This document shows, one piece after another, positions 2,560 to 42,310 of a stretch of DNA of 64,000 bases. The first letter of the stretch is position 1. Every line of letters begins with the position of its first letter. The stretch covers positions 248,001-312,000 of the forward strand of contig JAUIGN010000003.1 in NCBI GenBank assembly GCA_030430075.1. The letters are read 5' to 3'. Made by a program: the position numbers and the translations under genes. A model generated the notes under the pieces. The model was given only the letters and a program-made list of their open reading frames with translations. It searched no databases and was not told where the DNA came from. This DNA comes from a bacterium. Lineage in GTDB: Bacteria > Planctomycetota > Planctomycetia > Pirellulales > Pirellulaceae.

Positions 2560-3789
2560 TTGGACAAACCAGCAGTGGACAAAGCACGCAGCGCCATTGT
2601 CGTTGTCGTCGACCGGCTCGGAAGCGGATTTCTGGGCCCGTACGGCAACACCTGGGTCGATTCCCCCACCTGGAATCGGCTGGCCGGTGAATCGCTGCTG
2701 TTCGAATCCGCACTGACGGACACCGTCTGTCTGGAGACCGTTTACCGCTCTTATTGGCAGGGCTTGCATGCGGCGGTGCCGGGCCAACCGCAAACACCGA
2801 CGTTTCCGCAACAAGCGACGGAACAAGGCATTGACACGTTGCTCATCACGGACTGCGAACGCGTTGGGCAACATCCTCTTGCGCGAGACTTCGCCTCCGG
2901 CACGGCCCTTTCGCGCACGGAAACACCCGTCGAAGCACGTTCGATCGACGAGACACGTTCGGGCCTCCTGTTTGCTGCGGCCATGGATGAACTGGCGACG
3001 CGGTCGCACCCTTATTGCCTCTGGCTGCACGCCGCCGCCATGAATGCCGCTTGGGACAGTCCCTACGCGATCCGCGAAGCGTTCGCCGACGAAGAGGATC
3101 CGCCTCCACCGGACCTCGTCTCGCCGCCAAACTACACGTTGGATGCCCACGTCGATCCGGATGAATTACTGGGGTTGTCCCACGCATACGCCGGAGAGGT
3201 CTGTGCCCTCGATCGGGTGCTGGATGCGTTCCTGGACGCGGTCAGCCAACTACCAACGGCCGACCAGACGCTTCTGATCGTCACCTCCCCACGTGGCTTT
3301 CCGCTGGGTGAACACGGCAAGGTCGGAACGGCCGGCGATCACTTGTTCGGCGAGACGCTCCATGTCCCGCTGCTGGTGCGACTGGCCGACCGCCACTGCG
3401 CTTCGCGGAGGTGCCGCAGCCTGGTCCAGCCGGCTGATCTGGGAGCGACACTGTATGACTGGTTCGGTCTGCTCGCTCCTGACGACCACTGGGGGACCAG
3501 CCTGCTCGCCCCGGCAACCATCGACCCGAAACGGTCCCTGGTTGCTGTCGCCGATGGCGAGCAGGCCTTGCGGACTCCGATCTGGCACTTCCGCTCGCAG
3601 CCCCCGACATCTCCCCTCCTCTTCGCCAAACCGGACGACCGCTGGGAAGTCAACGAAGTCGCGGACCGCTGCCCCGACGTCGTGGCAGAGCTAGCAGCCG
3701 CTTTGGAACGCTTTGCAGGGCAGGTCCAGTCATCCCGTTCTCCCTGCCTGCCCCAGCTTGCCGACGAATTCGTGATCGAAGCCCGCTGA
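2560..3789 (+). CDS. Sulfatase-fold protein without canonical CxPSR site
   Basis: A 409-residue protein of the alkaline phosphatase/sulfatase superfamily. It opens with AIVVVVDRLGSGFLGPYGN, matching the first strand and metal-binding Asp of sulfatases. It also contains HGKVGTAGDHLFGETLHVPL, the usual 'LGEHG...K...YEE..RVP' metal-site region, and a late LFDWFG-like segment. Where active sulfatases carry C/S-x-P-S-R before the T/S-G loop, this protein reads TVCLETVYRSYWQG. The Cys-to-formylglycine motif is therefore broken, and it may be non-catalytic or use other chemistry. No signal peptide is evident, suggesting a cytosolic location. The start is TTG at 2560 with a GTG alternative at 2575; no clear ribosome site is seen, so the start is uncertain. 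It stands alone on the plus strand, divergent from moxR. Confidence 0.8.
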   Translation: MDKPAVDKARSAIVVVVDRLGSGFLGPYGNTWVDSPTWNRLAGESLLFESALTDTVCLETVYRSYWQGLHAAVPGQPQTPTFPQQATEQGIDTLLITDCERVGQHPLARDFASGTALSRTETPVEARSIDETRSGLLFAAAMDELATRSHPYCLWLHAAAMNAAWDSPYAIREAFADEEDPPPPDLVSPPNYTLDAHVDPDELLGLSHAYAGEVCALDRVLDAFLDAVSQLPTADQTLLIVTSPRGFPLGEHGKVGTAGDHLFGETLHVPLLVRLADRHCASRRCRSLVQPADLGATLYDWFGLLAPDDHWGTSLLAPATIDPKRSLVAVADGEQALRTPIWHFRSQPPTSPLLFAKPDDRWEVNEVADRCPDVVAELAAALERFAGQVQSSRSPCLPQLADEFVIEAR

Positions 3790-3923: not shown

Positions 3924-6900
3924 GTGTCTTCTGAATCTTCAATTCAATCTGGGACACGACGGCTCGTCGGCGGGCTCTGTCTATTGTTCTGCGCCCACGC
4001 CGCCACGGCGTACGGCCAGTTGTCCGAACAGGACGTCGGCGTTCGCCTGACCTGGGGCGAGGGCGCGCCGCGGACCTGGCATGGTTCCATTCAACTCACG
4101 GCGGGGCGGATCGTTTCGGCGGAGCGGTTGGGGTTCGCGGCGGACGCGCCCGGCGCCATGGCGATGCAGGACGGCGTACTGAAGTTCTGGCAACGGGGGC
4201 CAACGCCCTTTGACGGCATGGACGTCCGGCTGCAGGGTCCGGGCACCGCCAAACTGATCGTGACCCTGGCTTCGGCCGACGGAGACGATCCGCCCCGCCA
4301 GGTCGAACTCACGTTGCAACAATTCACCTCCCGCCAACCCTTCTATGACAGCTCTAAGCTGGACGACCTACAGAATCGCGTCGTGGCTCGCCGCGCGCCG
4401 GGCGATCGGCTGCGGGTCGAATTCCAGCGCGACTCGCTGGTCTTCTCCCCGGGGGAAGGCTTTGCCTTCAAGGTGTTGCCGGCGCACCTGGGGTTTCCAC
4501 CCGGTACGCAGCTCAAGTGCCACGTCGAGCTGGTGCAGATTCACGCAGGCGAGGCGGTCTGGGAAGACGAATCGTCTTTTGAAATCGACGTCAACGGCGA
4601 CGCACCGCCGTTCGGCCCCTTACAGCTGACCATGCCCACGACCGAGGACGTCTACGACCTTGTCGTCACGCTGCACGAATGGAAGTTTCCCCGTTACGTC
4701 AAAGTCAGGCAGCGTCGAGTGCAGTTGGTGGTGGTTGACGGCCGGCGGCAGCGGCCGGTTCCGGTGCCCGCACCGGTGGCGTGGAAAGAGGTCAACAAGG
4801 TCGATCTGACCAACCCGGCCTGGTGGAACCGGTGGACTTGGCCCCAGTTGTCACGCGTCACCGAAGCGATGCAAGGTCCGCTCGGCAAGGAGAATACTCG
4901 CACGCGGGTCCACCAAGGCGTCAAGCTGACCGAGTTGACGACGTGGTGGGCGATGCAGATCCCGGTGTCCCAGATCGGCCGTCCCCACATTCTGGAAATC
5001 GAATACCCCAACGACATCCGGCAGACGATGGGGATCAGCATCCTGGAGCCGGATGCGGCGGGGATCGTGTTGCCGGTCGGCCTGAACGGGGGCCTCGACG
5101 TGCAGCCGCAGCCAAGCCAGGCTGCCCCGGCCATGGTCAAACATCGGATGATCTTCTGGCCGCGGACGACTTCCCCCCTGCTGTTGTTGACCAACCGGCG
5201 GGACGAAGGGACCGCCCTGTTTGGAGAAATTCGAGTCCTCTCCGGCCCGCGCACGCTGCCCCCCGAAGCGACGTATGCACCCGGCAACCGACTGGTCGCC
5301 GCTTATTACGACAAGCCCTTCTTCCCGGAAAACTTCAATGCCCCGTCCGGCCGGGACGAAGCGACGGGCCGGTCGCTGGACAACTGGGAAAAGTTCTTTG
5401 CGGGCGGTCGCCGCTTGACCGAGTACCTGCAACATGTTGGATACAATGCGGCCATCGTTTCCGTCGCCCGCGATGGAAGTTCGCTTTACCCCAGCCAGTT
5501 GCTGGACCCCACGCTCCGCTACGACAACGGAGGGCTATTCTTCACCGGCCAGGATCCGCTCCGCAAAGACGTCCTGGAGATGCTTTTCCGCCAATTCGAC
5601 CGCCAGGGACTGAAGCTGATACCGGCCGTGCATTTCGCCACGCCCCTGCCGGAGTTGGAGTATTGCCTGGCGACCAGCGGAGCCGAAGGCGCGGGCATCG
5701 ACCTGCTGGAGGTCGACCACGCGGGAGCCAATCACCTGGCGCGGCACCGCGCCCAGCAAGGTCTCGCGCCGTACTACAACCCGCTGGACCCGCGCGTGCA
5801 AGACGCGATGCGGCGGGTGCTGGCCGAGTTGACCAGTCGCTATTCTCACCACCCATCCTTCGGCGGCCTTTGTATTCAACTGGGGACCAACACGTTCACG
5901 CACCTTCCCGATCAGAACTGGGGCCTGGACGACGCCACCATGGCCCGGTTCGCTGCGGATGCCGACATCGACGTTCCGGCGGACGGACCGGGCCGTTTCG
6001 CCGCACGAGCGAAGCTGTTGAGCGCCTCGGCGCGGACGCCGTGGCTGCAGTGGCGCAACCAGACGCTCGCCAAGCTGTACCGCGACATGCAGGACGACCT
6101 GACCGATCGGCGGCCCGATGCCCACCTCTATCTGGCCACCGGCGAATTGCTGCAGAGCGGGCCGGTCCGCGAAGAAATGCGGCCGCGGCTGCCGCGTCAC
6201 GGCGAGTTTCCACAAGCCATGTACCGGCACGGCCTCGACCCCGCCCAATTTGCCGACGACGCGCACATTGTCCTCCTGCGAGGTCGTCGCCAGGCACCGC
6301 TCATCTCGCTGGCCACTCAGGCCGTTAACGTCAACGTCAACGAGTCGCCACGGGTCGATCAGTTTTTTGGCAAGGCCCGGCAGGTCGGGGTGCTGAATTT
6401 CCACGAGTCGCAGCCGCAGCGGCTCGCCGAGTTCGCCGCGGTGAGCCCCTTCGGTGTGGCCCAATCGATGGCCCGCTTCGAATCCCATTTCGCAGCCGAC
6501 GGGATCAACAACCGGGCCCGGTTCGCCGCCAGTCTCGCTCGGCACGACGCCCCGGTGATCGTCGAAGGGGGCGCCCTGATCCCGTTGGGTCAGGAGGAGT
6601 CGTTCCGGGACTTTCTGCGGGTCTACCGGGACCTGCCCGCGGTCCCTTTCGATGCAATCGAGTCATCGTTTCACGCCCCCGACGAGACACCGGTCGTCGT
6701 TCGCCAGGCGCATGACCGGAAAGGCACCTACGTCTATGCGCTGAACAATTCGGCCTGGCCGGTCGACGTGAATGTGCAGTTCGATCGCCCAGCGAGCCCG
6801 CTGACCCTGGGCGGAGACGCAACGTCCGGCCCGCGATCCGGTGACGGCAACCAGTGGTCGACCAAGCTCCCCCCGTTCGGCCTGCAGGCCGTGCTGATTG

Positions 6901-26011: not shown

Positions 26012-26554
26012 TCAGCCATTGACGAGCTCAACGAGTTCGCTGTGATCGACCGGCTTCTGGATGACATGATGCATGCCGGAATCGAGGGCCGCCTCGACGG
26101 TGGCGACCGTCGGCCGGTCCGCACACAAGATGCCACGCAGACCTCGTTGGTGCCCTTTCATTCGCTCGAAAACTTCCTGGCCCCGCGCATGGCTCAGCGA
26201 TTCATCGATGATGGCTACGTCGTACCGCTGCTCGTCAGAGTACTCCAAAGCGCACCTTGAGGAATGCGCGGTATCGACATCGTTGCCTTCTTCAGCGAGT
26301 ACGTTCGCGATGGAGGATCGAGCGTCGGGATTATTTGAAACGACAAGTAGCTTTTGATTCTGCATGGCTGTACCCGGTATCTCATACGCTTGGCCGGTGA
26401 TGACCGCTGCGGCGACCTCTTCGCGATGAACCGGAACGTCGCCGGGTGCATCGATACCCACCTTGACCTTGTTGCCACGGACCGCCACGACCGTGATGGT
26501 GATGTCAGAACTGATGATGATACGCTCACGTACCTTTCTCGAGAGTACGAGCAT
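26012..26554 (-). CDS. CsrA domain fused to response-regulator receiver domain
   Basis: A 180-residue protein with two domains in one frame. Residues 1-50 are CsrA: MLVLSRKVRERIIISSDITI, with the RNA-contact residues L4, R6 and the VHREEV segment (R44) intact. After a short linker, residues 67-180 form a receiver domain: KLLVVSNNPDARSSIANVL, phospho-acceptor D117 in YDVAIIDESL, and K167 in VIQKPVD. The acidic pocket is S-N-N rather than D-D, and the switch Thr/Ser is Cys144, so phosphorylation may be weak or absent. ATG 26554 is used because CTACGGAGGGCCAC precedes it. CsrA normally is a stand-alone ~60-residue dimer binding GGA motifs in mRNA leaders; the fusion suggests signal-controlled RNA binding. 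The gene is monocistronic and convergent with DUF1501. Confidence 0.92.
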   Translation of the reverse strand: MLVLSRKVRERIIISSDITITVVAVRGNKVKVGIDAPGDVPVHREEVAAAVITGQAYEIPGTAMQNQKLLVVSNNPDARSSIANVLAEEGNDVDTAHSSRCALEYSDEQRYDVAIIDESLSHARGQEVFERMKGHQRGLRGILCADRPTVATVEAALDSGMHHVIQKPVDHSELVELVNG

Positions 26555-26937
26555 GTGGCCCTCCGTAGACTTCCATTCCGTGTGCGGCAAAGAAATGACA
26601 ATGCGGAACCAGAGGGCGACCTAAAAGACGTATGACCGCATTACGATCCGTACGATCCGGGTCGCATTGATGCACTTCGCATTGGAGTTCTGGCCAGACA
26701 TGGTTGCTCCTCCCTGCTAGCTGGTGTCGTTTGCTGCCGATCAACTTGCCGCAGCCTAGGACGTGAGGTTGTCGAGTGTCAAGGGGAATCGCGGTGTGCA
26801 GATCGCGACATCTGTTCACTCGGACAACGGACCTGGATTCTTCAGGAACGAACAGCGGTGCAATGCAAGTCGCTGTGCCGCAACCGTTTACGGCAAGCTT
26901 ACTCGAGCGGCCGCCCATCTCAGCCGGCTGACCCATC

Positions 26938-27092
26938 CGCTCGGCGCGGGTCTCTTCACCTATTCGCTCGGCGCGGGTCTCCGACCTATTCGCTCGGCGC
27001 GGGTCTCCGACCCATCCGCTCGGCGCGGGTCTCCGACCTATTCGCTCGGCGCGGGTCTCCGACCCCGCCGAAACCGCTGACCGAAGGTCTCA
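26938..27092 (-). repeat. Dispersed repeat family, copy C (five 26-27 bp units)
   Basis: Five units of the core CTCGGCGCGGGTCTC spaced 27, 26, 26 and 26 bp end with CCCCGCCGAAACCGCTGACC and GAAGGTCTC. This is the inverse complement of copy B's order. Linkers alternate between ACCTATTCG and CCCATCCG. Confidence 0.9.
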
Positions 27093-27250
27093 AACCCCAA
27101 TCGGTCGCGTTCGCATGCCGGGCCAGTATCGTTAATCTGAAGGCAGGTGTCGGTTGGCCCCCGTCGCCGGACAGTCGAAGGCTGAAACCACCGTCTGGCG
27201 TCTGTAGCTACAGTCGACGTGCGGCAGGCAACTTGCACCGTTCCGCCGGT

Positions 27251-27376
27251 CCGACACAGCATGTCCGGCACAGCATGTCCGGCACAGCATGTCCGACACA
27301 GCATGTCCGACACAGCATGTCCGGCACAGCATGTCCGACACAGCATGTCCGACACAGCATGTCCGACACAGCATGT
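27251..27376 (+). repeat. 14-bp tandem array, nine units
   Basis: Nine head-to-tail copies of CCGRCACAGCATGT cover exactly 126 bp. Position 4 varies A/G (units 2, 3 and 6 have G); the rest is invariant. The array ends 26 bp before the stop codon of the minus-strand lipoprotein gene. There are no unique spacers, so it is not a CRISPR array. Confidence 0.95.
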
Positions 27377-27402
27377 CCGACGAAGTCAATCGAGAATGAC
27401 CG

Positions 27403-27897: not shown

Positions 27898-27992
27898 AAA
27901 GTGGTCCTCAGACTGGGTTGGTTATCGTCTCGCCACACGGCGCGACGCGGCAACGCGAATCACAACTCGCTGCGCGTCGCTCTCGCTTCCGC

Positions 27993-28192
27993 TCGGCGCG
28001 GCTCTCTCTCGTTTCCATTCGGCGCGGGTCACACTCCCAACTGCTCGGCGCGGGTCTCTGCCCATTCCGCTCGGCGCGGGTCACACTCCCAACTGCTCGG
28101 CGCAGGTCTCTGACCATTCCGCTCGGCGCAGGTCTGTGGCCATTCTGCTCGGCGCGGGTCTCTGACCCCGCCGAAACCGCCGACCGAAGGTC
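27993..28192 (-). repeat. Dispersed repeat family, copy D (seven 26-bp units)
   Basis: Seven units of 26 bp begin with TCGGCGCGGGTC. Two are of a CACACTCCCAACTGC subtype and the others carry TCTCTGACCATTCCGC-like linkers. The block ends CCCCGCCGAAACCGCCGACC and GAAGGTCTCC, the inverted terminal module. It separates the DUF1559 gene from the lipoprotein gene. Confidence 0.88.
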
Positions 28193-30270: not shown

Positions 30271-33200
30271 TCACGGATTGCTCGCCGGCAGCGTGCGGGC
30301 AACTCGGAAACCCTGCACGTGGCTGCGCGTGGTCGCGGCGGCGCGGGTTCGTTCGGCCGCTCGGATTGTGGGGAGCGAAGCCTGAAAATGGCCGCCGCGA
30401 ACCTCGAACGCCGCTCGGCCACGTGCCAGCACGGTGTCGCCAAAATCATCGCGGCGATAAGCGCGATAGGCTGGCGTTTCGTACCGCCCGTGGCGGTCCT
30501 GGCACCATTCCATCACGTTGCCCAGCATATCGAACAGCCCCCAGCGATTGGGCAGATGACTGGCGACGGGGTGGGTCTTGTAATCCGAGTTCGCCACGTA
30601 GCAGACAAAGGCCGGCGCCAGGCGTGACAGTTCCCCAAAGTAGCGCGGCGCGTTGTTGCCGGCGCGGCAGGCATACTCCCATTCGGCCGCGGTGGGCAAG
30701 CGATACCCGGTGCGGTGGAGAAAATCCTCGGGCAGACGGATCGCTTCGCCCTCTTCCTGCTCCCAGATGTCAGGATAGCACCATGCTTCTTCGGGCAGCC
30801 CTTCCCGTTCGCTCAACCACTGACAAAACCGGGCCGCGTCCCATTGGTTCACTGAAATCTGTGGGCAGTCTTCGGCGGGGACGTATTGTTCCGAGAAGTA
30901 CAGCTTGTTGACACGAGGATCCTGCAGAAACCGTGCAAACTGCGCTCGCGTCGTTTCGGTCGCCGCGATCGCGAAACTGCGGCCGATCTCCGTCCAGTGT
31001 TGGGTTTCCGAGTCTCCGCGATAGGTTTCCCATTCCGGTGAACCCATCGGGAATCGGGGCGGGTTTCGCACCAGGACCATCGTCTGGCCCAGCGAATTGG
31101 CGTACCAGTTTCGCTCCGCGTCTGCGGTCGGCAGCTCGAATTGGCCCGCCGTCAAAGGTTGTGCGGGGACGTCCCATCGGCCGAGGCACCATTTGGCCAG
31201 GGCTTGGGTAAGCGAGCGGGGATCGGTCGTTTGCTGTTTCACCTGGGCGACCATCCGGTCGCGTTGCGGTTGGCTGACCTGTTCGAGCGGATAGTGGCCC
31301 AACGCCGACAAGAGGCCTTGCCGGTCGCCCGTTGTCCGTGCTACCAGAAATTGGCGCGCCAGAAACGTCGCTTCGACGCCCCAACGGTAGGCCTCGGTGA
31401 TGGCCAAATTCTGCGTCTCGCGACCCTGGTCACCCCGCAGGATACCGAGCAGCGGTTCCGGATCGCCGACCAGTTCGAGGGTCAGGGCGAGCTTGAATCT
31501 CGCGCCGGCAAGTTGCTCGAATTCCGCTTCCGTCGGCCGGGAACGTTGCCAGGCGGAAACGGTCCGCAATCCGGACTCGACCGGCGCCGCCGTCACCGAT
31601 CGAGGTGTGTAGCCTTGGGCAGCCAGATCGCGGCCGGAGGTCTGCAGCGTCGTGTCATCGTCCGCGATCAGCAACCGGGATTCCTGGTCTGATGACCCCC
31701 GCCAGGCGACCAGGCCGCGCTCGCCAAAGCCGGCTTCATCAAGCCATGCACGACCGGCCGCCGCCTTTCTCAAGTAGTCGAAATCGGGCTCGGAGAGCAC
31801 CGTCGTGGCGGTCGACACGGGCGACGCTTCCATCCCGCTCAATTGGGTCAGGGCTGCGGCCAGCAAGTCGTCGGCCTCCGCTGAGTCTGCGGGCGCGACC
31901 CGCGACGCCAGCAGGACGTTGGCCCGGGCAAGCTTGAGACGGATCGAGTCGCTCGGCGTATAACGCGTCAACTGCTGCAGTTGACGTCGGGCCGATTCCA
32001 CGTCGTCTTCGGCCAGCGCCAGCCGGAGTGTCAGCAGCTCACGCGTCGACGCTGACTTGGACAGTTTACTGTAGCGGTCCAGGTCCGCTTGTGCCCGAGC
32101 GACATCACCCTGCCGGATGAAAGCTTCCGTCCGGTACTGGAACAAACGAGAATTGGTTGCATCCCGATCGATCGCCGCGGAAAGTTCGTCGATGGCGGCG
32201 TCGGTCCGCCCCAGGTCAAGCAGATACTTGGCGTAGGTGCCCTGGGCGACTGTCAGAGCGGATGCCGTCCGCCCGGCAGCCGCCTCGGGATCGAGATACC
32301 AGCCGTGCCGTTGCATCGCCAATTCCGCCGGGACAGGATTGACCTTCGCCGGATCGTGGTCCCAGACCCGCGCGTCGGTGCACAGCATCCCGGGAAACAG
32401 TTCGCCAAACGCTGCCCGGAACCGGAGGTACGGCCCCGCAACACTCGGCTCTCCCTGCTGGGAAATCCGCCAGATCGACGTGTACCGGGGGCGGTTGTCG
32501 TGCCCGAGTCGAAACAGGATTCGGTCAATCCATTCGGTCTCACAGCGCGCTTCCAAAGCGGCCTGAAATTCGCCCAGCGGTTCGTCAAACCTCAGCCGAA
32601 CTTGCTCGGGATGTTCGTCACGAACCCAGAGCGCCGCATACAGGGGCTCGTCACTGGTCTGGCAAAGGTCGTGCAATGCGAACCCTTGTTCGCGATATCG
32701 GCGATCGGTTTCTTGCACCGCAGCCGACGTGAGCTGATCGGCCGTTCTCCATGACCGCCCGTCACGCACCCAACCCGCCGCGACGCGGTCGGGACCGTAG
32801 TTCGTTGCGGCGGCATCGCGGGACGAATCGAGCGTTGACAGGTAAGGCCGATAGCTGGAGGGTCGAAAACCGCTGTCCGACAGGGCAGTGGCCAGGTCGA
32901 CAAAGTCGAGTGCCGGCAGGCTGTGGACGATGGCCGCATCTCCCTGGACCCAGCCGCCGCCGCCGCGGATCTTCCGCAGGATCGGCTCGGGCAGCGCGTC
33001 GTCTTCCGTGCCGGTACCTTGGCTCGTGACGGCCTGCCAGCGTCGTTCGGCGGCCCGGCGCAGATGGGGGAAACGCCCCCTGACGAGTTGCCGGTAAACG
33101 AGAAAGTCTTCCCGAGGGGCTGCTTCCAACGACTCAGCAATGAACTCGGCGTCTTCCGCCGACCCGCGTTTCCAGGCCAGCAGGGCCAGCGCTGCGCGGA

Positions 33201-35949
33201 GTTGCTCGGCGGCCGTCTTCGTTGTCGCGGTGCGCAGGTGGCGCGCGGCCCAGGGCTCGAACGTGCGGGCCTGTGAAACGGCCAGTGGCAACAGGTTGAT
33301 TTGTGCCTGAAGAACCTGCTCCGCTTCGTGACGGCCTCGAATCCAGCCGTAGCAGGACCAGCCGGCAAGGATCAGCAACCCCAACGCCGCCCCGGTCAGC
33401 AGCACGTTACGTAGCTCGCGTCGGTCGGCCGCCCGCATCATCCGCCGTTCGGTTTCGTTCCAGCGACGACCGCGGGCAGAAATCCGAATCTCCAGCCATT
33501 CGAGCAACGAAGGCAGGCGGCGTGGTTCAGGCCTGGCTGCCCAAATGTCCGCTCGCTCTTGCAGGAGCAGCCGAGCCCGCCCCGGTCGCTCACGCTTCTC
33601 GGCGGTGATCAGCCACCTGCGCAGCAGGGGGACCAGCTGATCGTGAGTCAACTGGTAGCTCGCCTCCTCCGCAGCGCTCGCCTCAGCCGACACTTGCTGG
33701 TGTGAGAAGGCGAGCAGCCGCACCTCGCTGTCCAGGAGTTTCAGCACCCGCTGGACCGTCTCGCGAGCCGCCGGCGGAGAGAGTTCCTGGCGGATCGATT
33801 CAACCGTCATTGCCGGTCGCCGGATCGACGTTCCTGCCGGCGGCAGCATCACGCCGAGCACCGATCGTACCAGCTCGGCCTGGTCGCGGAGGACGGGGTG
33901 TGAACGGGGCCCCACCAAGAGCTCGTCCAAGAACGCGACTTCCGCTTCGGCGAATCCGCCCAGATCGCGCACCGTCGCCGCCGTCCAGGGATGGTTTTTC
34001 AACATCTCAGCCAACAGGGCGATGCGCAGCGGCGACACGAACTCGTCTTCGACAATCGCTTCAACCGCCTCGTCCAGGAACTGGTCCTGGTCCCGGTCAG
34101 GTGAATCTTGAATGGCGCCGCAGGCACGGCCGAACTCGGCCAACACGTCTCGGGCATGCGCGCGGCCAAGTCCTTCCACGACGGCGAAGTTGTGGCTCTG
34201 CTGCAGCGGCTCTTCCAGTTCGTCCAGGAAGTTGGTCGTGAGCAGTGTAAAATCATCCCGGACCAATAGCATGGCTTGGACGCGGGTTCCGTCACACTGC
34301 CGGAGCGCTTCGACCAAGTCTCTGGCTTCGTCGTCGCCGGACCGCATCAGGCAATGTTCGAACTGATCGATCACGATCAGCAGCTTTCGCGCTGACTCCA
34401 ACCCGTGGCCGGCGCGGATGGATTCCAGCATATGACTGAGAGGAACGGCAGGCTCCAAGGAGGGAAAGCAACGCGCCAATTCGGACTTCAGTGCCGGCGC
34501 GACGGCGGTCCCCGTACCCTCGACGAAGACCGTCTCCACGTGCGGGGCGAGCCTGGGGAGTAACCCGGCGCGGACCAGGGACGACTTTCCGCTACCGCTG
34601 GGCCCCATCAGAACGCCAACTCGAAATGCCTGGTTGCCCTGGGTCGCCTCGATGCGCGTCTTCCAAAAGCGGACCGACTCCGGGAGGCCGTCTCGATCCC
34701 GGGGCCCGGGCAGCAACCGCAAGAAGAAATCAGCGTCGGACGCATCAAAGGCCCGCAGTCCTTTCGGTACGACGGCGGACCTGTCGGGGTCAGGGGATGG
34801 GTCGTGCGGCCGTAGCCATTGGTTCAAATCGTCTGCCAGATCGTCCGCCGTCAGGTAGCGGTCGGTCATGCGTTTGGCGATGCATTTCAGACAGATCCGC
34901 TCGAGTTCCGCGGGAATGCGGTCGTCCACCTGACGCAACGGCTTCGGTTCGCGATATTGGATCTCATCAAACAGTTGGTCGGCATCGGCTCCGGTAAACG
35001 GTCGGCGCGACGTCAAAAGTTCGTAGAAGAGAATCCCCAGACTCCAGATGTCGGTGCGTCCATCGAGCCGATGGGCCTCGCCGCGGACCTGTTCCGGTGC
35101 CATGTAGGGGCGCGTCCCTGCCAATTCACCTCGATGCAACCAGCGAAGATCATCGTGAAGTGACAGGCCGAAGTCGGCCAGAAACGGCCGATCCTGGCCG
35201 TCCAACAAGATATTGGCCGGCTTGATGTCGCGATGCACGAACCCGCGTTTGTGGGCAAAATGCAGCGCGGCGGCCATCCGCGCAACCAGCTTGACCACCT
35301 GCCGCGGCGGGAGCCGCCCCTGCCCCATCCGGGCATCAAGGGACTTGCCGGAAAAGTACGGCATCACGACATACGGGCGGTTGTCTGCGCTGCCGGACTC
35401 CAGAATCGGCACGATCGCTTCATGTTCCAGCCCGGCCACCGCCTGCGCTTCGTGGGCCAAAGCGCTGACTCTTCGGTCCGAATCGCCGTCGGGCCGGGAA
35501 ACCTTGATTGCCACGAGCTGATCGGATTGGGGGCGGCGCGCCAGGTAAACCACAGCGAACCCACCCCGCCCCAGTTCGCGAAGCACGGCGAAGGGCCCGA
35601 TCTGCCGCGGCATGTCAGGGTCATACGCGGCCCCGGCAGCCGCTCCGCTGTCCAGCGACATGGTCGAATGGTTGGCAAGTGCCTTGGCGTTGTCCAGGAA
35701 CTGGCGGCAGCCCGTTTCGGCAAAAATGGACTCGTCGCCCGCAACCGCATTCGGGTCGAACCGGCCAAACTCAAGCGTCCAGCCGTGGGACCCGGAATTG
35801 ATCGTATCGAGCCGTTCGACACACTGCCGGCAAGCCTGCAGGTGGTGCTCAATCCGGGCAATCGACGGGTTGGGCAACCGGCCTGAATTGAATTCTTGCA
35901 ATTCTCCCATGGAAGGGCAGGCAAGTTGTTCGGTAGGGTCGGTGCTCAC
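30271..35949 (-). CDS. Ser/Thr kinase - STAND ATPase - TPR - FGE-sulfatase domain protein
   Basis: A giant 1892-residue protein. Residues 35-43 (HHLQACRQC) form a zf-HC2-like anti-sigma zinc motif. A complete protein kinase spans about 118-385: GRGGFAVVY loop (127-135), K149 in VAIK, HRD (239-241), DFG (259-261), APE (284-286). A STAND/AAA-like NTPase follows with Walker A GPSGSGKSS (449-457). One membrane helix (about 845-867, LLTGAALGLLILAGWSCYGW) divides the protein, and TPR-like repeats fill the middle. A C-terminal formylglycine-generating-enzyme-like domain (from about 1640; PMGSPEWETY, GYRLPTAAEWEYACRAGNNA, DMLGNVMEWCQDR) ends it. The kinase and zinc motif would be cytosolic; the TPR and FGE parts would be across the membrane. 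The ECF sigma gene is 9 bp upstream, so a sigma-kinase signalling unit is likely. Confidence 0.95.
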   Translation of the reverse strand: MSTDPTEQLACPSMGELQEFNSGRLPNPSIARIEHHLQACRQCVERLDTINSGSHGWTLEFGRFDPNAVAGDESIFAETGCRQFLDNAKALANHSTMSLDSGAAAGAAYDPDMPRQIGPFAVLRELGRGGFAVVYLARRPQSDQLVAIKVSRPDGDSDRRVSALAHEAQAVAGLEHEAIVPILESGSADNRPYVVMPYFSGKSLDARMGQGRLPPRQVVKLVARMAAALHFAHKRGFVHRDIKPANILLDGQDRPFLADFGLSLHDDLRWLHRGELAGTRPYMAPEQVRGEAHRLDGRTDIWSLGILFYELLTSRRPFTGADADQLFDEIQYREPKPLRQVDDRIPAELERICLKCIAKRMTDRYLTADDLADDLNQWLRPHDPSPDPDRSAVVPKGLRAFDASDADFFLRLLPGPRDRDGLPESVRFWKTRIEATQGNQAFRVGVLMGPSGSGKSSLVRAGLLPRLAPHVETVFVEGTGTAVAPALKSELARCFPSLEPAVPLSHMLESIRAGHGLESARKLLIVIDQFEHCLMRSGDDEARDLVEALRQCDGTRVQAMLLVRDDFTLLTTNFLDELEEPLQQSHNFAVVEGLGRAHARDVLAEFGRACGAIQDSPDRDQDQFLDEAVEAIVEDEFVSPLRIALLAEMLKNHPWTAATVRDLGGFAEAEVAFLDELLVGPRSHPVLRDQAELVRSVLGVMLPPAGTSIRRPAMTVESIRQELSPPAARETVQRVLKLLDSEVRLLAFSHQQVSAEASAAEEASYQLTHDQLVPLLRRWLITAEKRERPGRARLLLQERADIWAARPEPRRLPSLLEWLEIRISARGRRWNETERRMMRAADRRELRNVLLTGAALGLLILAGWSCYGWIRGRHEAEQVLQAQINLLPLAVSQARTFEPWAARHLRTATTKTAAEQLRAALALLAWKRGSAEDAEFIAESLEAAPREDFLVYRQLVRGRFPHLRRAAERRWQAVTSQGTGTEDDALPEPILRKIRGGGGWVQGDAAIVHSLPALDFVDLATALSDSGFRPSSYRPYLSTLDSSRDAAATNYGPDRVAAGWVRDGRSWRTADQLTSAAVQETDRRYREQGFALHDLCQTSDEPLYAALWVRDEHPEQVRLRFDEPLGEFQAALEARCETEWIDRILFRLGHDNRPRYTSIWRISQQGEPSVAGPYLRFRAAFGELFPGMLCTDARVWDHDPAKVNPVPAELAMQRHGWYLDPEAAAGRTASALTVAQGTYAKYLLDLGRTDAAIDELSAAIDRDATNSRLFQYRTEAFIRQGDVARAQADLDRYSKLSKSASTRELLTLRLALAEDDVESARRQLQQLTRYTPSDSIRLKLARANVLLASRVAPADSAEADDLLAAALTQLSGMEASPVSTATTVLSEPDFDYLRKAAAGRAWLDEAGFGERGLVAWRGSSDQESRLLIADDDTTLQTSGRDLAAQGYTPRSVTAAPVESGLRTVSAWQRSRPTEAEFEQLAGARFKLALTLELVGDPEPLLGILRGDQGRETQNLAITEAYRWGVEATFLARQFLVARTTGDRQGLLSALGHYPLEQVSQPQRDRMVAQVKQQTTDPRSLTQALAKWCLGRWDVPAQPLTAGQFELPTADAERNWYANSLGQTMVLVRNPPRFPMGSPEWETYRGDSETQHWTEIGRSFAIAATETTRAQFARFLQDPRVNKLYFSEQYVPAEDCPQISVNQWDAARFCQWLSEREGLPEEAWCYPDIWEQEEGEAIRLPEDFLHRTGYRLPTAAEWEYACRAGNNAPRYFGELSRLAPAFVCYVANSDYKTHPVASHLPNRWGLFDMLGNVMEWCQDRHGRYETPAYRAYRRDDFGDTVLARGRAAFEVRGGHFQASLPTIRAAERTRAAATTRSHVQGFRVARTLPASNP

Positions 35950-35958
35950 AACGCCCCC

Positions 35959-36564
35959 TCACGACTCCAGGCGAAATTCTTCCCGGAGGCGGCGCAAGAT
36001 GCGTGACTTGATCGTATAGACATTTTGCCGTTCCATGCCCATTTCCGCAGCCACGTCGGAGGCCGCGGCGCCTTCCAGGACGACGCGTTGAAATACCTGC
36101 CAATGCGTATCGCTAAATTCACTCTTGATGAACTCCAGGATGCGGAGAAACAGTCGCTGCAGGTCGTCACTCAGATCCACCGGATCCGGATCGGGCGTGA
36201 TGCTCTGCAGATGGGCACGATGCGTACTGCCGCCGACCGCCTGCGGTTGCTTCCCCTTCCGCCGCCAGTGGTCGTGAACCTTGTTGATGGTGACGGTACG
36301 TAGCCACCCCAGGAATGTATCCTCGGGCCCCTGCCGGCGAAAATTGCCCAGTTGTCGAAATACGGCGCGGAACACCTCCTGCGCCGCATCACGCGCATCC
36401 TCCTCTCCCAATTGCTTCTGGCGGCACCATTTGTAGACAAGCGGTCCGTACAGCTCGACGACTCGGCTCCATGCCTGCTCGTCGTTGGTGACTGCACGCG
36501 ACAGCAGGCTGGATGTGATCGAGCTGACGGTCTCTTCAAAATCACTAACGCCGGGGTCTGTCAC
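35959..36564 (-). CDS. ECF RNA polymerase sigma factor (kinase-linked)
   Basis: A 201-residue sigma-70 family protein. Region 2 spans about residues 20-95, with DAAQEVFRAVFRQLGNFRR and FLGWLRTVTINKVHDHWRR. Region 4 is at about 140-195, with QRVVLEGAAASDVAAEMGM and NVYTIKSRILRRLREE. It binds core RNA polymerase to direct transcription of a small regulon. It is encoded 9 bp upstream of the kinase giant on the same strand. That protein carries a zf-HC2-like segment, so the pair probably behaves as sigma and membrane-anchored regulator, perhaps with phosphorylation replacing a classical anti-sigma switch. The extended linker between regions 2 and 4 is typical of planctomycete ECF groups. Confidence 0.95.
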   Translation of the reverse strand: MTDPGVSDFEETVSSITSSLLSRAVTNDEQAWSRVVELYGPLVYKWCRQKQLGEEDARDAAQEVFRAVFRQLGNFRRQGPEDTFLGWLRTVTINKVHDHWRRKGKQPQAVGGSTHRAHLQSITPDPDPVDLSDDLQRLFLRILEFIKSEFSDTHWQVFQRVVLEGAAASDVAAEMGMERQNVYTIKSRILRRLREEFRLES

Positions 36565-36874
36565 GGACGGCCCTTACGAACAGGAACAGGGGGCACAAAC
36601 AGGAACAACGGGTGCCGGCCAGCAGTTCATGCGGCCAAGCGAACCCGCCAAACGACTCGCGATCCGCGGCGGCGGCGTTGAAATCGGTGAGCGCACCACC
36701 AGCATTTATGGTAGTATCTTGAGTTGGCGGAACAACTGCGAGCGAAGTCCGACCTTCGCTCCGTTGTCAACTTCTGGATTGCGGCCCGACGTGCATGCGA
36801 TCCGTCTGCATCTCGGGCAACATGCTTGCCGCAAGGCGACTTGCCCAGTTCGACGGCGGCAGAAAGGTTGCGAG

Positions 36875-38932
36875 ATGCCCCGTAAGATCACGCTCCGCGT
36901 CCGTCACGGCAGCCGCGGTTCCGTCTCAAATCGGCTATTACTGGTTGCGATGGTGGCCGCCTTCATCAATGCGACGCTCGCCGTGGCGACCGCTCAACCG
37001 AATTATCGCCTCCGCATCGCGTCGTACCAGTTCGACCCCAGTGAAGGCCGCCCAGAGCTCCCGGACCACTTGGCTCTGCCCTGGCAACTGACCGAACCGG
37101 GCCATGTACTGGTTCAGTTCCAGCGTCCCCTGAATCGCAACGATCGTAACCGCCTCCGGGAGGGCTACGGATTGCGGCTGCAGGAATACTTCCCCAACCT
37201 GGCATTCCTGGAGAAACTCGGCCCCGAACAGCTCGCCGCGGTGGCGAGGGACCCGCTGTTCCGAGCCTCAATTCGCTTTCAACCGGCCTTCAAAATCTCC
37301 CCGCAGATCGGCAAGCACAAGTTCGTCACGCCGCAGCGGCAGGCGATCAAGGGCCTGTTGCTGCGGGCGACCCTGTTTCCCGACGCTGAGTCCAAGTCCC
37401 TGGTCGACAAGTTGGCAAGTATCGAGGCGCGGGACATCAAACAGTTTCAACCAAGGCAGAATCAAGTACGTGTGCGGTTCCTGCTGGAAAACGCGGACCG
37501 GATCCCAACCATCGCGAAGTGGGAGGAGGTCCGCTGGATCGAAGAGGTGGGCGAGATTATTTCCGACAACAGCACCGTTGCCGGGACGGTGCAGTCAGGC
37601 GATCGCCACAACGCCACGGTCTGGGCGCGTGGGCTCCACGGCGAAGGGCAGATCATCGGTTTGATTGACGCGGCACCGGTCGACATCAACCACTGCTGCT
37701 TTCGGGAGAACGGGCCGAACGTCGCGGGTCCTACGCACCGCAAGGTCGTGGCGATTCGGAATGCCTCGGGGACTTTGGCCATCACCTTTCCGCACGCCAC
37801 CCGGGTCGCCGGATGTCTTGCGTCGGACGACATCGGCTCGATGGGGACGGCGCCGCGACGCGGCGGTGCCTGGAATGCTCGCATTGTTTCCGCCAACTAC
37901 CACGACATCGCCAACGGGCACAGTTCGCTGATCGACGAACTGCGGGCCGCCCGCGGGTTGGGAGCAACGATTCATTCCAACAGTTGGCATCAGACAGCAG
38001 GGGGGACGGATTCCGACGATATGGCGGCGGATGTCGACCATTTCATGTGGACCCACGAAGACAGCCTGGTCATCGGGTCGGCCGGGAATACCGGCGGACA
38101 ACAGGGGCCGCCGGGGACGGCCAAGAGCGCCCTCTCGGTCGCTGCCTCGCGACCGGATCCGCACGAGATGTCATTCGGCAGCGGCGTCCCGGGTCCTACC
38201 GATGACGGTCGCCGTAAGCCGGAAGTCACCGCTCCCGGGTGCGGTTTGCTGACCGCCAGGCCGGGATCAATGTGCACACAGATTCCCGTGGGATCATGCG
38301 CCAGCAGCTATGCCACGCCACACGTCGCCGCCGCCTGCGCGCTAATTCGGCAGTACTTTACCCAAGGTTGGTTCCCCAGCGGCACCAAACGTCCGTGCGA
38401 CTCGTTTGCGCCAACCGGCGCGCTGCTCAAAGCGACCATCATCAATGCCACGCGCGACATGACCGGCGTCCCGGGGTACCCGAGCAATCGCGAGGGCTGG
38501 GGCGTGGTTCAGTTGGATCGAACGTTGTACTTCGCTGGAGATTCCCGCAACTTGAAAGTGATCGACCGGCGCCACGCCAACGGCCTCGACACCGGCGGCT
38601 CATTCCAGACCCAGGTCGACATCGCCGGTTCCGCCGAGCCGTTGAAAGTCACGCTGACCTGGTCCGATCCCAGCGCCGCCCGAGGAACGTCGCCGGCCAT
38701 CGTCCATGATCTGAACCTGGTCGTCATTTCCCCGGCGGGAAACCGGTACCTGGGCAATCACTTCGTCGGCGGAAACTCCGCGACGGGAGGGGTGGCGGAT
38801 AGCATCAACACGTGTGAAATGGTGTTGCGCAACGCGCCCCAACCCGGCCTCTGGCAGATCGAAGTCAACGGAGCCAACGTCAGCCGTGGTCCGCTGCAAG
38901 GCTTCGCCCTGGTGGTGACCGGGGACTTTTGA
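36875..38932 (+). CDS. Secreted subtilisin-like (S8) serine protease
   Basis: A 685-residue protein from ATG 36875. The long open frame upstream to 36485 overlaps the divergent sigma gene and is unlikely. Signal peptide LLLVAMVAAFINATLAVATA. A propeptide-like region follows to about residue 230. The catalytic triad is readable: Asp265 in IIGLIDAAPVD, His307 in FPHATRVAGCLAS and Ser478 in ASSYATPHVAAA. The His motif is HATRVAG instead of HGTHVAG, and GTS is ASS, so it is a divergent member. The oxyanion Asn region (NSWHQTAGG) is present. A C-terminal beta-sandwich (LKVTLTWSDPSAARGTSPAI, HDLNLVVISPAGNRYLGN) resembles the domain of large extracellular S8 proteases. It is likely cell-envelope or extracellular. 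Confidence 0.92.
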   Translation: MPRKITLRVRHGSRGSVSNRLLLVAMVAAFINATLAVATAQPNYRLRIASYQFDPSEGRPELPDHLALPWQLTEPGHVLVQFQRPLNRNDRNRLREGYGLRLQEYFPNLAFLEKLGPEQLAAVARDPLFRASIRFQPAFKISPQIGKHKFVTPQRQAIKGLLLRATLFPDAESKSLVDKLASIEARDIKQFQPRQNQVRVRFLLENADRIPTIAKWEEVRWIEEVGEIISDNSTVAGTVQSGDRHNATVWARGLHGEGQIIGLIDAAPVDINHCCFRENGPNVAGPTHRKVVAIRNASGTLAITFPHATRVAGCLASDDIGSMGTAPRRGGAWNARIVSANYHDIANGHSSLIDELRAARGLGATIHSNSWHQTAGGTDSDDMAADVDHFMWTHEDSLVIGSAGNTGGQQGPPGTAKSALSVAASRPDPHEMSFGSGVPGPTDDGRRKPEVTAPGCGLLTARPGSMCTQIPVGSCASSYATPHVAAACALIRQYFTQGWFPSGTKRPCDSFAPTGALLKATIINATRDMTGVPGYPSNREGWGVVQLDRTLYFAGDSRNLKVIDRRHANGLDTGGSFQTQVDIAGSAEPLKVTLTWSDPSAARGTSPAIVHDLNLVVISPAGNRYLGNHFVGGNSATGGVADSINTCEMVLRNAPQPGLWQIEVNGANVSRGPLQGFALVVTGDF

Positions 38933-40513: not shown

Positions 40514-42190
40514 CTACTTGCCGACGTGGGTTCGCACATTCCGCATCCCGGCCTTGAGTTCGGCGAGCCGTCGCTGCAGAAAGCGATGAGAAATCTCGCG
40601 TGCCTTCGCCTGGTCTGCCTCGTCGTAATCCCAGAACTCCTGCAGGATCGCTTCGCACTTGGGATAGTGGCTGCCGTCGTCGCCGACCCGCCGGCGCGCG
40701 GCGACGAGGCGCCGCTTGAGTTCCGCCGCCAGTTCGGCATGGTCCGGATCGTGAAACAGGTTGCGCGTTTCGTGAGGATCGTTGGCCAGGTCGTATAGCT
40801 CCCATCCCGGTGGTGTCCGGTAGCCGCCGTCGTAGTTGCAACCATAGTAGTAGATCAACTTGTGCGTCTTGGTTCGAATGCCGACGTGGGCAGGATTGTC
40901 ATGATGGATCATGTGCATCCAATAACGGTAGTAGGCTTCCTGTTTCCAGCCGTCGGGTTCGTTGCCGGTCTCCAAGAGTGACTTGAACGAGCGGCCCTGG
41001 ACCGAATCCGGCACGTCCGCTCCGGCGAACTCCAGCATTGTGGGCCCGTAGTCCACGTTCTCCACGATGGTGTCGATCCGCTGGCCGGCCGCAATCGATT
41101 TCGGGTATCGAACCAGAAACGGCATCCGCTGGGATTCTTCATACATCCAACGTTTGTCCTGGTAGTCGTGTTCGCCGAGCATGAACCCCTGATCGCCGGT
41201 GTAGATAATTACCGTATTGTCGATTTCCCCGGTCTCTTCCAGATGGCGGAACAACCGCCCCAGGTTGTCGTCGATGCCTTTCACGCAGCGGAGAAATTTC
41301 TTCAGGTAGGCGTTGTAGGCCAGTCGCGTGTTTTCCTGATCGGAGTGGTTGGCCGGGTCATAGTTGTCGGGAAACTCTGCGGGATACAGCTTCGGCAAGT
41401 CGCGAAGATACGATCGCCGGGGATTTCTCCCGCCGATCGAGGTTCCGATATGTCGTACGAGTTCGTCGTCGGCTCCGCGAGTTGCGATCGAGCCGAAGCG
41501 CGAGTCCCGCTCCCACAGCGTCGCGGGTTCCGGAATCGCGACGTCGGCCAGGTAGGACTCGTAGCGCGGCGCATTGTCAAAGTAGTCATGCGGCGCCTTG
41601 TAGTGATGCATCAGGAAGAACGGCTTCTCTTGATCGCGGCCATGTTGCAGCCAATCGAGTGTCAGATCGGTGATGGCGTCCGTCGAGTGTTTGCCGGAAA
41701 ACTTGATGACGTTCTTGCCCCATGGCTTCTCTCCCCTCACTCGAAACTCGGGGTTGTGGTACTTGCCCTGACCAGGCAACACGCAGTAGTAGTCGAAGTC
41801 GGCCGGTTCGACCTTGAGATGCCACTTGCCGATCATCGCCGTCTGGTAACCGGCTTTCCTCATTTGAATGGCCAACATCTGCTTGCCCGGTTCGACCTTA
41901 CCGCTCAAGTCAAACGCGCCGTTGAGATGGTTGTATTGGCCCGTCAGCACGCAGGCGCGGGACGGGGAACAGATGGAATTGGTGCAGAAAGCATTGGTGA
42001 AAAGGGCTCCCTCCCTGGCCAGGCGGTCAATATTGGGCGTCGGAGCAACTTCAGCCAGCCGACTACCGTAGGCGGAAATCGCATGCGCGGCGTGATCGTC
42101 CGACATGATGTAGAGGATATTCGGCCGTTCCGCAGCCAGGACGAAGGACGGCGTCAGGAGTCCGACAATCAACAGGAGAATCCGCATCAT
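40514..42190 (-). CDS. Secreted formylglycine-dependent sulfatase
   Basis: A 558-residue arylsulfatase-type enzyme. ATG 42190 gives a clear signal peptide (MMRILLLIVGLLTPSFVLA) and is preceded by ATCGAGGTGAGAAAAATC; an in-frame ATG at 42226 lacks a ribosome site. Metal ligands begin in NILYIMSDDHA. The formylglycine site is CSPSR (residues 74-78) followed by ACVLTGQYNH. The YTGDQGFMLGEHDYQDKRWMYEESQRMPFLVRYP segment (in pieces) is the canonical second metal and substrate region. Such planctomycete enzymes desulfate algal or mucin polysaccharides in the periplasm or outside. They need formylglycine generation; the FGE-like domain in the window belongs to a kinase and is probably not that enzyme. 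It follows DUF1501 by 120 bp. Confidence 0.96.
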   Translation of the reverse strand: MMRILLLIVGLLTPSFVLAAERPNILYIMSDDHAAHAISAYGSRLAEVAPTPNIDRLAREGALFTNAFCTNSICSPSRACVLTGQYNHLNGAFDLSGKVEPGKQMLAIQMRKAGYQTAMIGKWHLKVEPADFDYYCVLPGQGKYHNPEFRVRGEKPWGKNVIKFSGKHSTDAITDLTLDWLQHGRDQEKPFFLMHHYKAPHDYFDNAPRYESYLADVAIPEPATLWERDSRFGSIATRGADDELVRHIGTSIGGRNPRRSYLRDLPKLYPAEFPDNYDPANHSDQENTRLAYNAYLKKFLRCVKGIDDNLGRLFRHLEETGEIDNTVIIYTGDQGFMLGEHDYQDKRWMYEESQRMPFLVRYPKSIAAGQRIDTIVENVDYGPTMLEFAGADVPDSVQGRSFKSLLETGNEPDGWKQEAYYRYWMHMIHHDNPAHVGIRTKTHKLIYYYGCNYDGGYRTPPGWELYDLANDPHETRNLFHDPDHAELAAELKRRLVAARRRVGDDGSHYPKCEAILQEFWDYDEADQAKAREISHRFLQRRLAELKAGMRNVRTHVGK

Positions 42191-42310
42191 GATTTTTCTC
42201 ACCTCGATTTCGATTGGCACGTTCATGCTCGATGTGGACGCGGCAAACGTTCGGCGACCACCGGACGGGGCACGCCGCCGGTCCCCGGCGGAGCCACCGC
42301 AGATTCTGCA

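What the first reader, a model, noticed from the sequence alone, without database searches (positions are those of the whole stretch)
30271..36564. Kinase-STAND-TPR-FGE giant encoded beside its ECF sigma factor
One 1892-residue protein contains a zf-HC2-like segment, a complete kinase, a STAND ATPase with Walker A, one membrane helix, TPR repeats and an FGE-sulfatase domain. The ECF sigma is 9 bp upstream. The cytosolic zinc motif plus kinase suggests the protein both tethers and phosphorylates the sigma. An FGE-like domain at the far end of a kinase is odd, because FGE enzymes normally make formylglycine in sulfatases; here it may act as a sensor.
Basis: partly seen in the sequence, partly recalled or inferred. 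Interest (0 to 1): 0.5.

Follow-up and report, generated by a model that had tools for sequence, protein, structure and literature searches.

The report
Sensor kinase with built-in anti-sigma domain
A very large bacterial membrane protein appears to hold a gene-switching sigma factor with its first hundred residues, sense something outside the cytoplasm with its far end, and join the two through a switch domain and a protein kinase; some relatives carry other front ends and lie beside other kinds of sigma factor.

Summary
In detail: a 1892-residue ORF with kinase, nSTAND1, one membrane helix, TPR and FGE domains, 9 bp after an ECF sigma gene. Tools added a BTRD1-type repeat region. The "zf-HC2-like segment" is better described as a class I (ZAS-type) anti-sigma domain: C11-x24-H36-x3-C40-x2-C43, a predicted three-helix bundle plus a fourth helix, and profile matches to solved anti-sigma factors. 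The 70 best-listed homologues of the sigma are followed by a kinase with this motif in 48 cases. The FGE domain is not odd here (85 of 92 related kinase-nSTAND1 ORFs have one) and has lost the formylglycine triad; its closest solved relative is a DGR variable protein, so a ligand-sensing role fits. Phosphorylation of the sigma is untested; most paired sigmas keep the acidic region 2.2 residues that ECF43 sigmas lack. A wider pattern: within one kinase-nSTAND1-TM-FGE family, three sigma types go with three kinase N-termini, strictly for two types, loosely for the third. ECF-kinase pairing in Planctomycetes is in print; the fused anti-sigma domain I did not find in the library, but the main classification papers are not held. 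Verdict: new variant of a known kind.

The parts
35959..36564 (-). ECF sigma factor, 201 aa
   Evidence: Sigma70_r2 1.3e-11, Sigma70_r4 2.8e-4 (below cut-off); sigma70-ECF 6.8e-17
30271..35949 (-). 1892-aa kinase-nSTAND1-TM-BTRD/TPR-FGE protein
35659..35937 (-). class I (ZAS-type) anti-sigma domain, residues 5-97: predicted helices 14-22, 27-39, 41-60 and 79-97
   Evidence: AlphaFold2 model: block means of pLDDT 80-96 over its first 50 residues, 65-79 over most of helix 4, pTM 0.43; profile matches to DdvA, ChrR, 3hug chain B and RsiW
35821..35919 (-). predicted zinc site C11-x24-H36-x3-C40-x2-C43
   Evidence: 24 residues between first ligand and His in 47 of 48 paired loci, the window among them; H36, C40, C43 invariant in 41 rows
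34849..35589 (-). Hanks-type protein kinase, residues 121-367, catalytic motifs present
   Evidence: Pkinase 7.4e-46; PknB 3f61 4.8e-41; motifs
33535..34764 (-). nSTAND1 NTPase, residues 396-805
   Evidence: 9.3e-22; Walker A and B
33340..33408 (-). single membrane helix, residues 848-870
   Evidence: only Kyte-Doolittle peak over 1.6 (best 1.82); such a segment near the STAND end in 84 of 92 relatives, more K/R on the N side in 68 of 84
32458..32997 (-). BTRD1-type alpha/beta repeats, residues about 985-1164
   Evidence: BTRD1 7.4e-6 at 1064-1110; model of this region
31735..32334 (-). TPR-type solenoid, residues about 1206-1405
   Evidence: model; Foldseek rows mostly TPR-type solenoids; sequence match weak
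31177..31686 (-). a further alpha/beta unit and a helical stretch, residues about 1422-1591
   Evidence: model
30295..31059 (-). FGE-subtype C-type-lectin domain, residues 1631-1885, with His, Ala, Ile at the places of the Ser-Cys-Cys triad
   Evidence: 2.5e-32; TvpA 2y3c 3.3e-15; motif test

Best explanation
The two genes form a one-protein signal chain for one sigma factor. The first ~97 residues of the giant are an anti-sigma domain of class I that binds the ECF sigma encoded just upstream and keeps it at the membrane (inferred from family and fold, not shown). The region after the membrane helix, BTRD and TPR-type repeats ending in an FGE-subtype lectin fold, lies outside the cytoplasm and binds a ligand (inferred). 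Binding is passed through the helix to the nSTAND1 domain, which with ATP changes its oligomeric state and turns on the kinase (inferred from established knowledge of STAND families). The kinase then phosphorylates its own anti-sigma part or linker, or the sigma itself, and the sigma is released (inferred). Precedent: PknB phosphorylates the anti-sigma factor RshA and so frees SigH (passage; a like passage). Some relatives exchange the N-terminal part together with the sigma type.
For: Pairing: of the 70 best-listed P0002 homologues 48 have a downstream kinase with [C/H]-x24/25-H-x3-C-x2-C, 5 a kinase without it, 17 no kinase found. In the window's genome 9 of the 30 best of 88 kinase matches have the motif; 7 of 9 follow such a sigma in tandem, against 0 of 21 others (Fisher 1.8e-5); an eighth has it divergently next door. 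Within 92 kinase-nSTAND1 ORFs the motif occurs in 3, all beside this sigma type. Fold and homology: four helices; profile of 41 rows against the PDB: DdvA 2.1e-7, ChrR 2.6e-7, 3hug chain B 0.0019 (RskA, name recalled), RsiW 0.0024 (26 rows give the same list); 6 of 12 Foldseek rows are anti-sigma chains; RsiW Z 6.0. Sigma and motif-domain distances correlate, 0.68, and 0.54 with the kinase held constant (48 pairs). Topology. Sensor.
Against: No binding, release or phosphorylation was or could be measured. Foldseek E-values for the anti-sigma model are 2 and above; the VIA Z of 6.0 has an rmsd of 5.2, and small helical folds can score so by chance; helix 4 is predicted with lower confidence. 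One profile hit as strong as the rest, 8rot, is named a CHAT-domain protein. Sigma and kinase distances correlate as well as sigma and motif domain (0.67; 0.53 with the motif domain held constant), so the correlation may be common descent. L189 has a related sigma but no zinc motif. 17 of 70 sigma loci have no kinase found after them, some cut by contig ends; 5 have a kinase without the motif. One motif kinase of the genome, L333, has no sigma in 10.5 kb. K/R do not favour the N side of the helix in 16 of 84 relatives.
Confidence: 0.55

Rival explanations
1. The zinc domain is only a docking tag that brings the right sigma to the kinase. The sigma is inactive by itself and is switched on when the kinase phosphorylates it, as in the ECF43 pairs EcfP-PknT and EcfK-PknS.
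For: A review table lists planctomycete groups ECF59, 61, 62 and 217 under phosphorylation because they lie beside kinases (passages); the pairs are co-encoded here too.
Against: The motif part matches true anti-sigma factors. The two region 2.2 Asp positions are kept in 43 of 48 sigmas each, whereas ECF43 sigmas lack the acidic motif; the same review notes that the other groups keep it and may work differently.
Confidence: 0.25
2. The giant is mainly a conflict (immune-like) STAND protein whose FGE end recognises an invader; the sigma only controls expression of the giant and is not its target.
For: nSTAND1 proteins with C-terminal FGE/CLec sensors are described as putative conflict systems (PMC10907252, passages). 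70 of 92 relatives with this body have no sigma ORF found next door on the same strand. A DGR in the same genome diversifies FGE domains beside a TIR/SEFIR gene.
Against: Kinase motifs are kept in 84 (VAIK), 85 (HRD) and 92 (DFG) of 92 relatives, and this sigma type goes with one kinase N-terminus.
Confidence: 0.13
3. The FGE domain is an enzyme, for example maturing sulfatases such as the one encoded at 40514-42226.
For: The window has a sulfatase-like ORF nearby (name from its sequence, not searched). FGE-fold proteins such as PvdO and EgtB appear among the solved relatives; that they are enzymes of other kinds is recalled.
Against: Ser-Cys-Cys replaced by His-Ala-Ile; 0 of 85 relatives have GGxxxCxxxxC, which the four FGE chains printed do have.
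Confidence: 0.05

Closest known systems
Class I zinc-binding anti-sigma factors (ChrR, RsiW, DdvA)
   Same: Hx3Cx2C motif, three-helix bundle plus fourth helix, encoded beside an ECF sigma
   Different: Here the domain stands in front of a kinase, STAND domain and membrane helix; binding not tested
STPK-linked ECF pairs: ECF43 (EcfP-PknT, EcfK-PknS) and planctomycete groups ECF59/61/62/217
   Same: ECF sigma gene beside a Hanks kinase gene
   Different: Region 2.2 acids mostly kept; kinase carries an anti-sigma-type domain; group assignment not tested
nSTAND1-FGE proteins and DGR targets of multicellular bacteria
   Same: nSTAND1 followed by a C-terminal FGE-subtype lectin domain
   Different: Kinase in front, membrane helix between, and no RT on its contig
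Planctomycete Ser/Thr kinases with periplasmic TPR or WD40 repeats (PMC11032199)
   Same: Cytoplasmic kinase, membrane helix, repeats outside
   Different: nSTAND1 between kinase and helix, FGE end, anti-sigma-type N-terminus

Membership tests
Class I anti-sigma domain (ASDI/ZAS) | Hx3Cx2C motif over helices 2 and 3 (definition from PMC7406223, passages) | tested here: met
   H36-x3-C40-x2-C43; predicted helices 27-39 and 41-60
Class I anti-sigma domain (ASDI/ZAS) | three-helix bundle followed by helix 4 | tested here: met
   four predicted helices; helix 4 at lower confidence, prediction only
Class I anti-sigma domain (ASDI/ZAS) | sequence homology to known anti-sigma factors | tested here: met
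   DdvA 2.1e-7, ChrR 2.6e-7, 3hug chain B 0.0019, RsiW 0.0024 with the profile of 41 rows; the window's sequence alone matches Pfam zf-HC2 only at 0.4
Class I anti-sigma domain (ASDI/ZAS) | encoded beside an ECF sigma | tested here: met
   the window, and 48 of 70 loci with the window counted
Class I anti-sigma domain (ASDI/ZAS) | binds and inhibits the sigma | not testable with these tools
   needs an experiment
ECF43-type phospho-activated sigma | region 2.2 lacks the acidic DAED motif | tested here: not met
   window EEDARD; D in 43 of 48 at each of two positions
Catalytic formylglycine-generating enzyme | Ser-Cys-Cys triad (Ser333, Cys336, Cys341 in human FGE, passages) | tested here: not met
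   His-Ala-Ile in the window by the GG...GFR motif; 0 of 85 relatives have GGxxxCxxxxC; four solved FGE chains have it
DGR target protein | variable repeat with a template repeat and reverse transcriptase nearby | tested here: not met
   the genome's three RVT_1 matches lie on contigs C22 and C27, not on the window's C35; a remote template was not searched for
Hanks-type Ser/Thr kinase | VAIK, HRDxKxxN, DFG motifs | tested here: met
nSTAND1 NTPase | profile match with Walker A and B | tested here: met
Planctomycete STPK-linked ECF groups (59/61/62/217) | assignment by the published group models | not tested
   the models and the 2021 classification paper are not held

The most novel reading that the evidence does not exclude
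Planctomycetes use a modular code: one receptor body (kinase-nSTAND1-membrane helix-FGE sensor) is wired to different sigma factors by swapping an N-terminal adaptor, a zinc anti-sigma domain or one of at least two other domains, each matched to its own sigma type. The kinase disarms its own built-in anti-sigma domain by phosphorylation, giving a one-protein path from an external ligand to a promoter.
Probability: 0.33. Interest if true: 0.7.

Novelty: new variant of a known kind. Interest (0 to 1): 0.5.

Why it matters
In the review passages seen, how planctomycete ECF sigma factors beside kinases are regulated rests on gene neighbourhood and analogy. An anti-sigma-type domain inside the kinase gives a direct, small test: bind residues 1-100 to the sigma. 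If the matching of N-terminal type to sigma type holds more widely, sigma partners could be predicted from kinase sequence alone.

Tried and rejected
Direct ECF43-like activation as first choice: set aside because region 2.2 acids are kept. FGE as formylglycine enzyme: rejected on the triad. The window's FGE as a DGR target: no RT on its contig. The C22 RT as a DGR: it lies beside a CRISPR-type repeat array and my repeat script found nothing there; that script's rule was too strict, since it gave only a weak row for the C27 locus, where repeat finder and a base count did show a DGR, so C22 is not fully excluded. The RT at C27:59901-60506 was not examined.

Pattern changes made after seeing data: one search looked for HxxxCxxC only; required C as first ligand (44 of 70 and 6 of 30 positive; four of the six had the sigma in tandem and three kinases without that pattern had it too). 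After seeing H-first motifs I allowed C or H (48 of 70 and 9 of 30). The entropy comparison first included the GG and GFR anchors (3.39 against 1.93 bits, p 7e-4); without the anchors it is 3.39 against 2.62 bits, p 0.008, 50 domains. Surface loops vary more than cores anyway, so this is only consistent with a ligand site.

Circularity and limits: the profiles for sigma types and N-terminal types were built by me from these same loci. The B-type N-terminal profile came from 7 of its 8 hits and the C-type profile from 4 of its 22. Of the 11 B sigma loci, 9 are loci already among the 92, so only two (L383, L388) are new; of the 30 C loci at least three (L348, L349, L350) were already used. 100 fetched stretches plus the window were scanned for the 92 ORFs, not every match listed. 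The 70 sigma loci are the 70 best-listed; several come from one genome, and L281/L282 and L306/L308 are near-identical pairs; 30 of them reach only about 1.5 kb downstream. Only the 30 best of 88 kinase matches of the genome were checked, and divergent sigmas were looked for only at the two exceptions. In one search L170 was typed C on 18.5 bits. L160, L185 and L237 have broken reading frames. Two of the 85 FGE calls are weak (L212 21 bits, L223 28 bits). Alignment A1, used for the model, holds 26 of the 41 rows printed, picked by me by no fixed rule; the profile search was repeated with all 41 and gave the same anti-sigma hits. None of 19 FGE domains of the window's own genome has the two-cysteine motif either, so the positive control is the four FGE chains, aligned there to L083, not to the window; the window's own match to FGE chains ends before that stretch, while its TvpA alignment covers it.

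The promoter scan found no sigma-70-like site near the genes. Among the 50 Foldseek rows shown for the middle region I saw no match that speaks for the BTRD part.
Full report
On the minus strand an ECF sigma gene (35959-36564) is followed after 9 bp by a 1892-codon gene (30271-35949). Pfam finds Pkinase, nSTAND1, BTRD1 and FGE-sulfatase over their cut-offs; zf-HC2 and TPR are far below theirs by sequence. Kinase and Walker motifs are present. One hydrophobic segment follows the STAND domain; 84 of 92 relatives have one near the same place, with more K/R on its N side in 68 of those 84. So kinase and STAND are probably cytoplasmic and the rest outside, as was predicted for other planctomycete kinases with TPR or WD40 repeats (PMC11032199, abstract and passages).

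The genome is a 9.24 Mb assembly of 101 contigs. I take it for a planctomycete from its relatives and its gene content; no call named it. It has 23 matches to FGE-sulfatase, 16 to nSTAND1 and 88 to Pkinase.

Relatives. In 149 sampled genomes of the same family, 68 match the giant at E 1e-80 or better; apart from the window itself the listed matches cover kinase plus STAND or STAND alone, up to about residue 980. From 100 fetched stretches and the window, 92 ORFs hold both domains in one frame, 629 to 2081 aa long. 85 of 92 also have an FGE domain; of the 7 others, three are cut by the end of a contig or of my stretch, two (L184, L237) have an FGE in the next ORF, and in two (L214, L215) none was found. 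The FGE end is thus the rule in this family, not an oddity.

N-terminal parts and sigma types. 22 of 92 have a sigma ORF on the same strand within -400 to 650 bp (one of them, L170, on a weak score): type A (window, L192, L205, and L189 with a question mark), B (9) and C (9). The zinc motif occurs in 3 of 92, all type A. My profile of B-type N-termini hits 8 of the 89 N-termini of 25 aa or more, all type B; the ninth B row, L185, is broken. My profile of C-type N-termini hits 22, but only 7 of these have an adjacent type C sigma, so this type often stands alone. Seen from the sigma side: of 70 A loci 48 are followed by a zinc-motif kinase, 5 by another kinase, 17 by none found; of 11 B loci 10 by a B-type kinase (9 of the 11 loci were already among the 92); of 30 C loci 20 by a C-type kinase, 2 by another, 8 by none found. 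In the tree of kinase plus STAND, type B is one supported group, while the A rows are not a supported single group, though one origin is not excluded. Of the window genome's 30 best kinase matches 9 have the zinc motif; 8 of these have a type A sigma next door (7 in tandem; one divergent), the ninth none in 10.5 kb; 0 of the other 21 have one in tandem.

What the zinc segment is. The ligands are C11-x24-H36-x3-C40-x2-C43; in 47 of 48 paired loci, the window among them, exactly 24 residues lie between the first ligand and the His, and the first is Cys in 43 and His in 4 of these 47. An alignment of 26 N-termini gave a model with four helices, the first three at high confidence except at their ends. 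A profile of all 41 printed rows finds DdvA, ChrR, RsiW and 3hug chain B (RskA by recall; the record calls it a conserved membrane protein) in the PDB, and one CHAT-domain protein (same list with 26 rows). Six of 12 Foldseek rows are anti-sigma chains, but all E-values are 2 or more; VIA-align gives RsiW Z 6.0, ChrR 4.6, DdvA 3.5 against 2.5 for unrelated rows. Class I anti-sigma domains are described in PMC7406223 (passages) by the Hx3Cx2C over helices 2 and 3, helix 1 contacting sigma domain 4 and helix 4 contacting domain 2. The features that sequence and prediction can show are met; binding is not shown.

How it may work. PMC8999054 (passages) lists planctomycete ECF groups 59, 61, 62 and 217 as probably phosphorylation-regulated because of neighbouring kinases, and says that groups other than ECF43 keep an acidic region 2.2 and may work differently. 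The sigmas here keep it: Asp in 43 of 48 at each of two positions. With an anti-sigma-type domain in the kinase itself, a simple mechanism is sequestration relieved by phosphorylation in cis; SigH is freed when PknB phosphorylates RshA (PMC13147305, passage). This order of events is inference. Distances between sigmas follow those between motif domains (0.68) but equally those between kinases (0.67), so co-inheritance is clear and a specific contact is not.

The sensor end. The best solved relative of the FGE domain is the Treponema denticola variable protein TvpA (3.3e-15), before CotH, PorK/GldK, PvdO and FGEs. PMC6328139 (passages) gives the human FGE triad as Ser333, Cys336, Cys341 and calls TvpA and TaqVP FGE-subtype lectin folds. 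The four FGE chains printed show GGxxxCxxxxC; the window has GGHFQASLPTI, so all three triad places differ, and 0 of 85 relatives have both cysteines. Loss of the triad excludes formylglycine making by that mechanism, not every other enzyme activity. A DGR in the same genome (contig C27) rewrites FGE domains: 39 of 40 mismatches in the first 120 bases of three repeats sit at template adenines. The codons it can rewrite correspond to the more variable positions in 50 family FGE domains (3.39 against 2.62 bits, p 0.008). This fits a binding surface; it does not prove one. The region between helix and FGE is modelled as BTRD-type alpha/beta repeats and a TPR-type solenoid.

Novelty. ECF-kinase neighbours in Planctomycetes, STAND-FGE proteins and kinases with external repeats are in print. 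In the listings, and in passages of the papers opened, I saw no kinase with a fused anti-sigma domain. Most subscription papers, among them the 2012, 2020 and 2021 works on planctomycete ECFs, are not held, so the claim of novelty is limited.

Noticed in passing
window 26012-26590 (-): One ORF fuses a CsrA domain (8.9e-21) to a response-regulator receiver domain (7.5e-18).
   Followed up: partly
window 26930-27064, 27249-27381, 27987-28167: Tandem arrays: a 26-bp unit (5.2 copies), a 14-bp unit (9.5 copies, 96% matches) and 26/52/78-bp units. A CTCGGCGCGGGTC core also occurs in a tandem array at L241 7603-7733, so it may be a dispersed repeat of this genome.
   Followed up: partly
L147 (own genome contig C27): template 3568-3729; variable repeats 2579-2740, 5462-5623, 6479-6640: A diversity-generating retroelement: RT, HRDC-domain gene and three FGE domains; 39 of 40 mismatches in the first 120 bases sit at template adenines. 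A TIR/SEFIR gene is nearby, and an AAA-type ORF by its sequence, not searched.
   Followed up: partly
L241 (own genome contig C22) 2295-2925 and 3467-4843: CRISPR-type repeat array (9 copies, 71-77 bp apart) beside a Cas2-like ORF and a reverse transcriptase (Cas2 name from its sequence, not searched).
   Followed up: no
L318, L320, L325 (own genome): A further kinase N-terminus, a CPxCG...CPxCL zinc-ribbon type, with longer sigma ORFs (288-323 aa) upstream: perhaps another adaptor and sigma type.
   Followed up: no
window 36485-38932 (+): Subtilisin-like protease ORF on the other strand beside the sigma gene (name from its sequence, not searched).
   Followed up: no
L144 / L302 (own genome contig C8): A second zinc-motif kinase with an FGE end but no STAND domain found, beside a type A sigma.
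   Followed up: no
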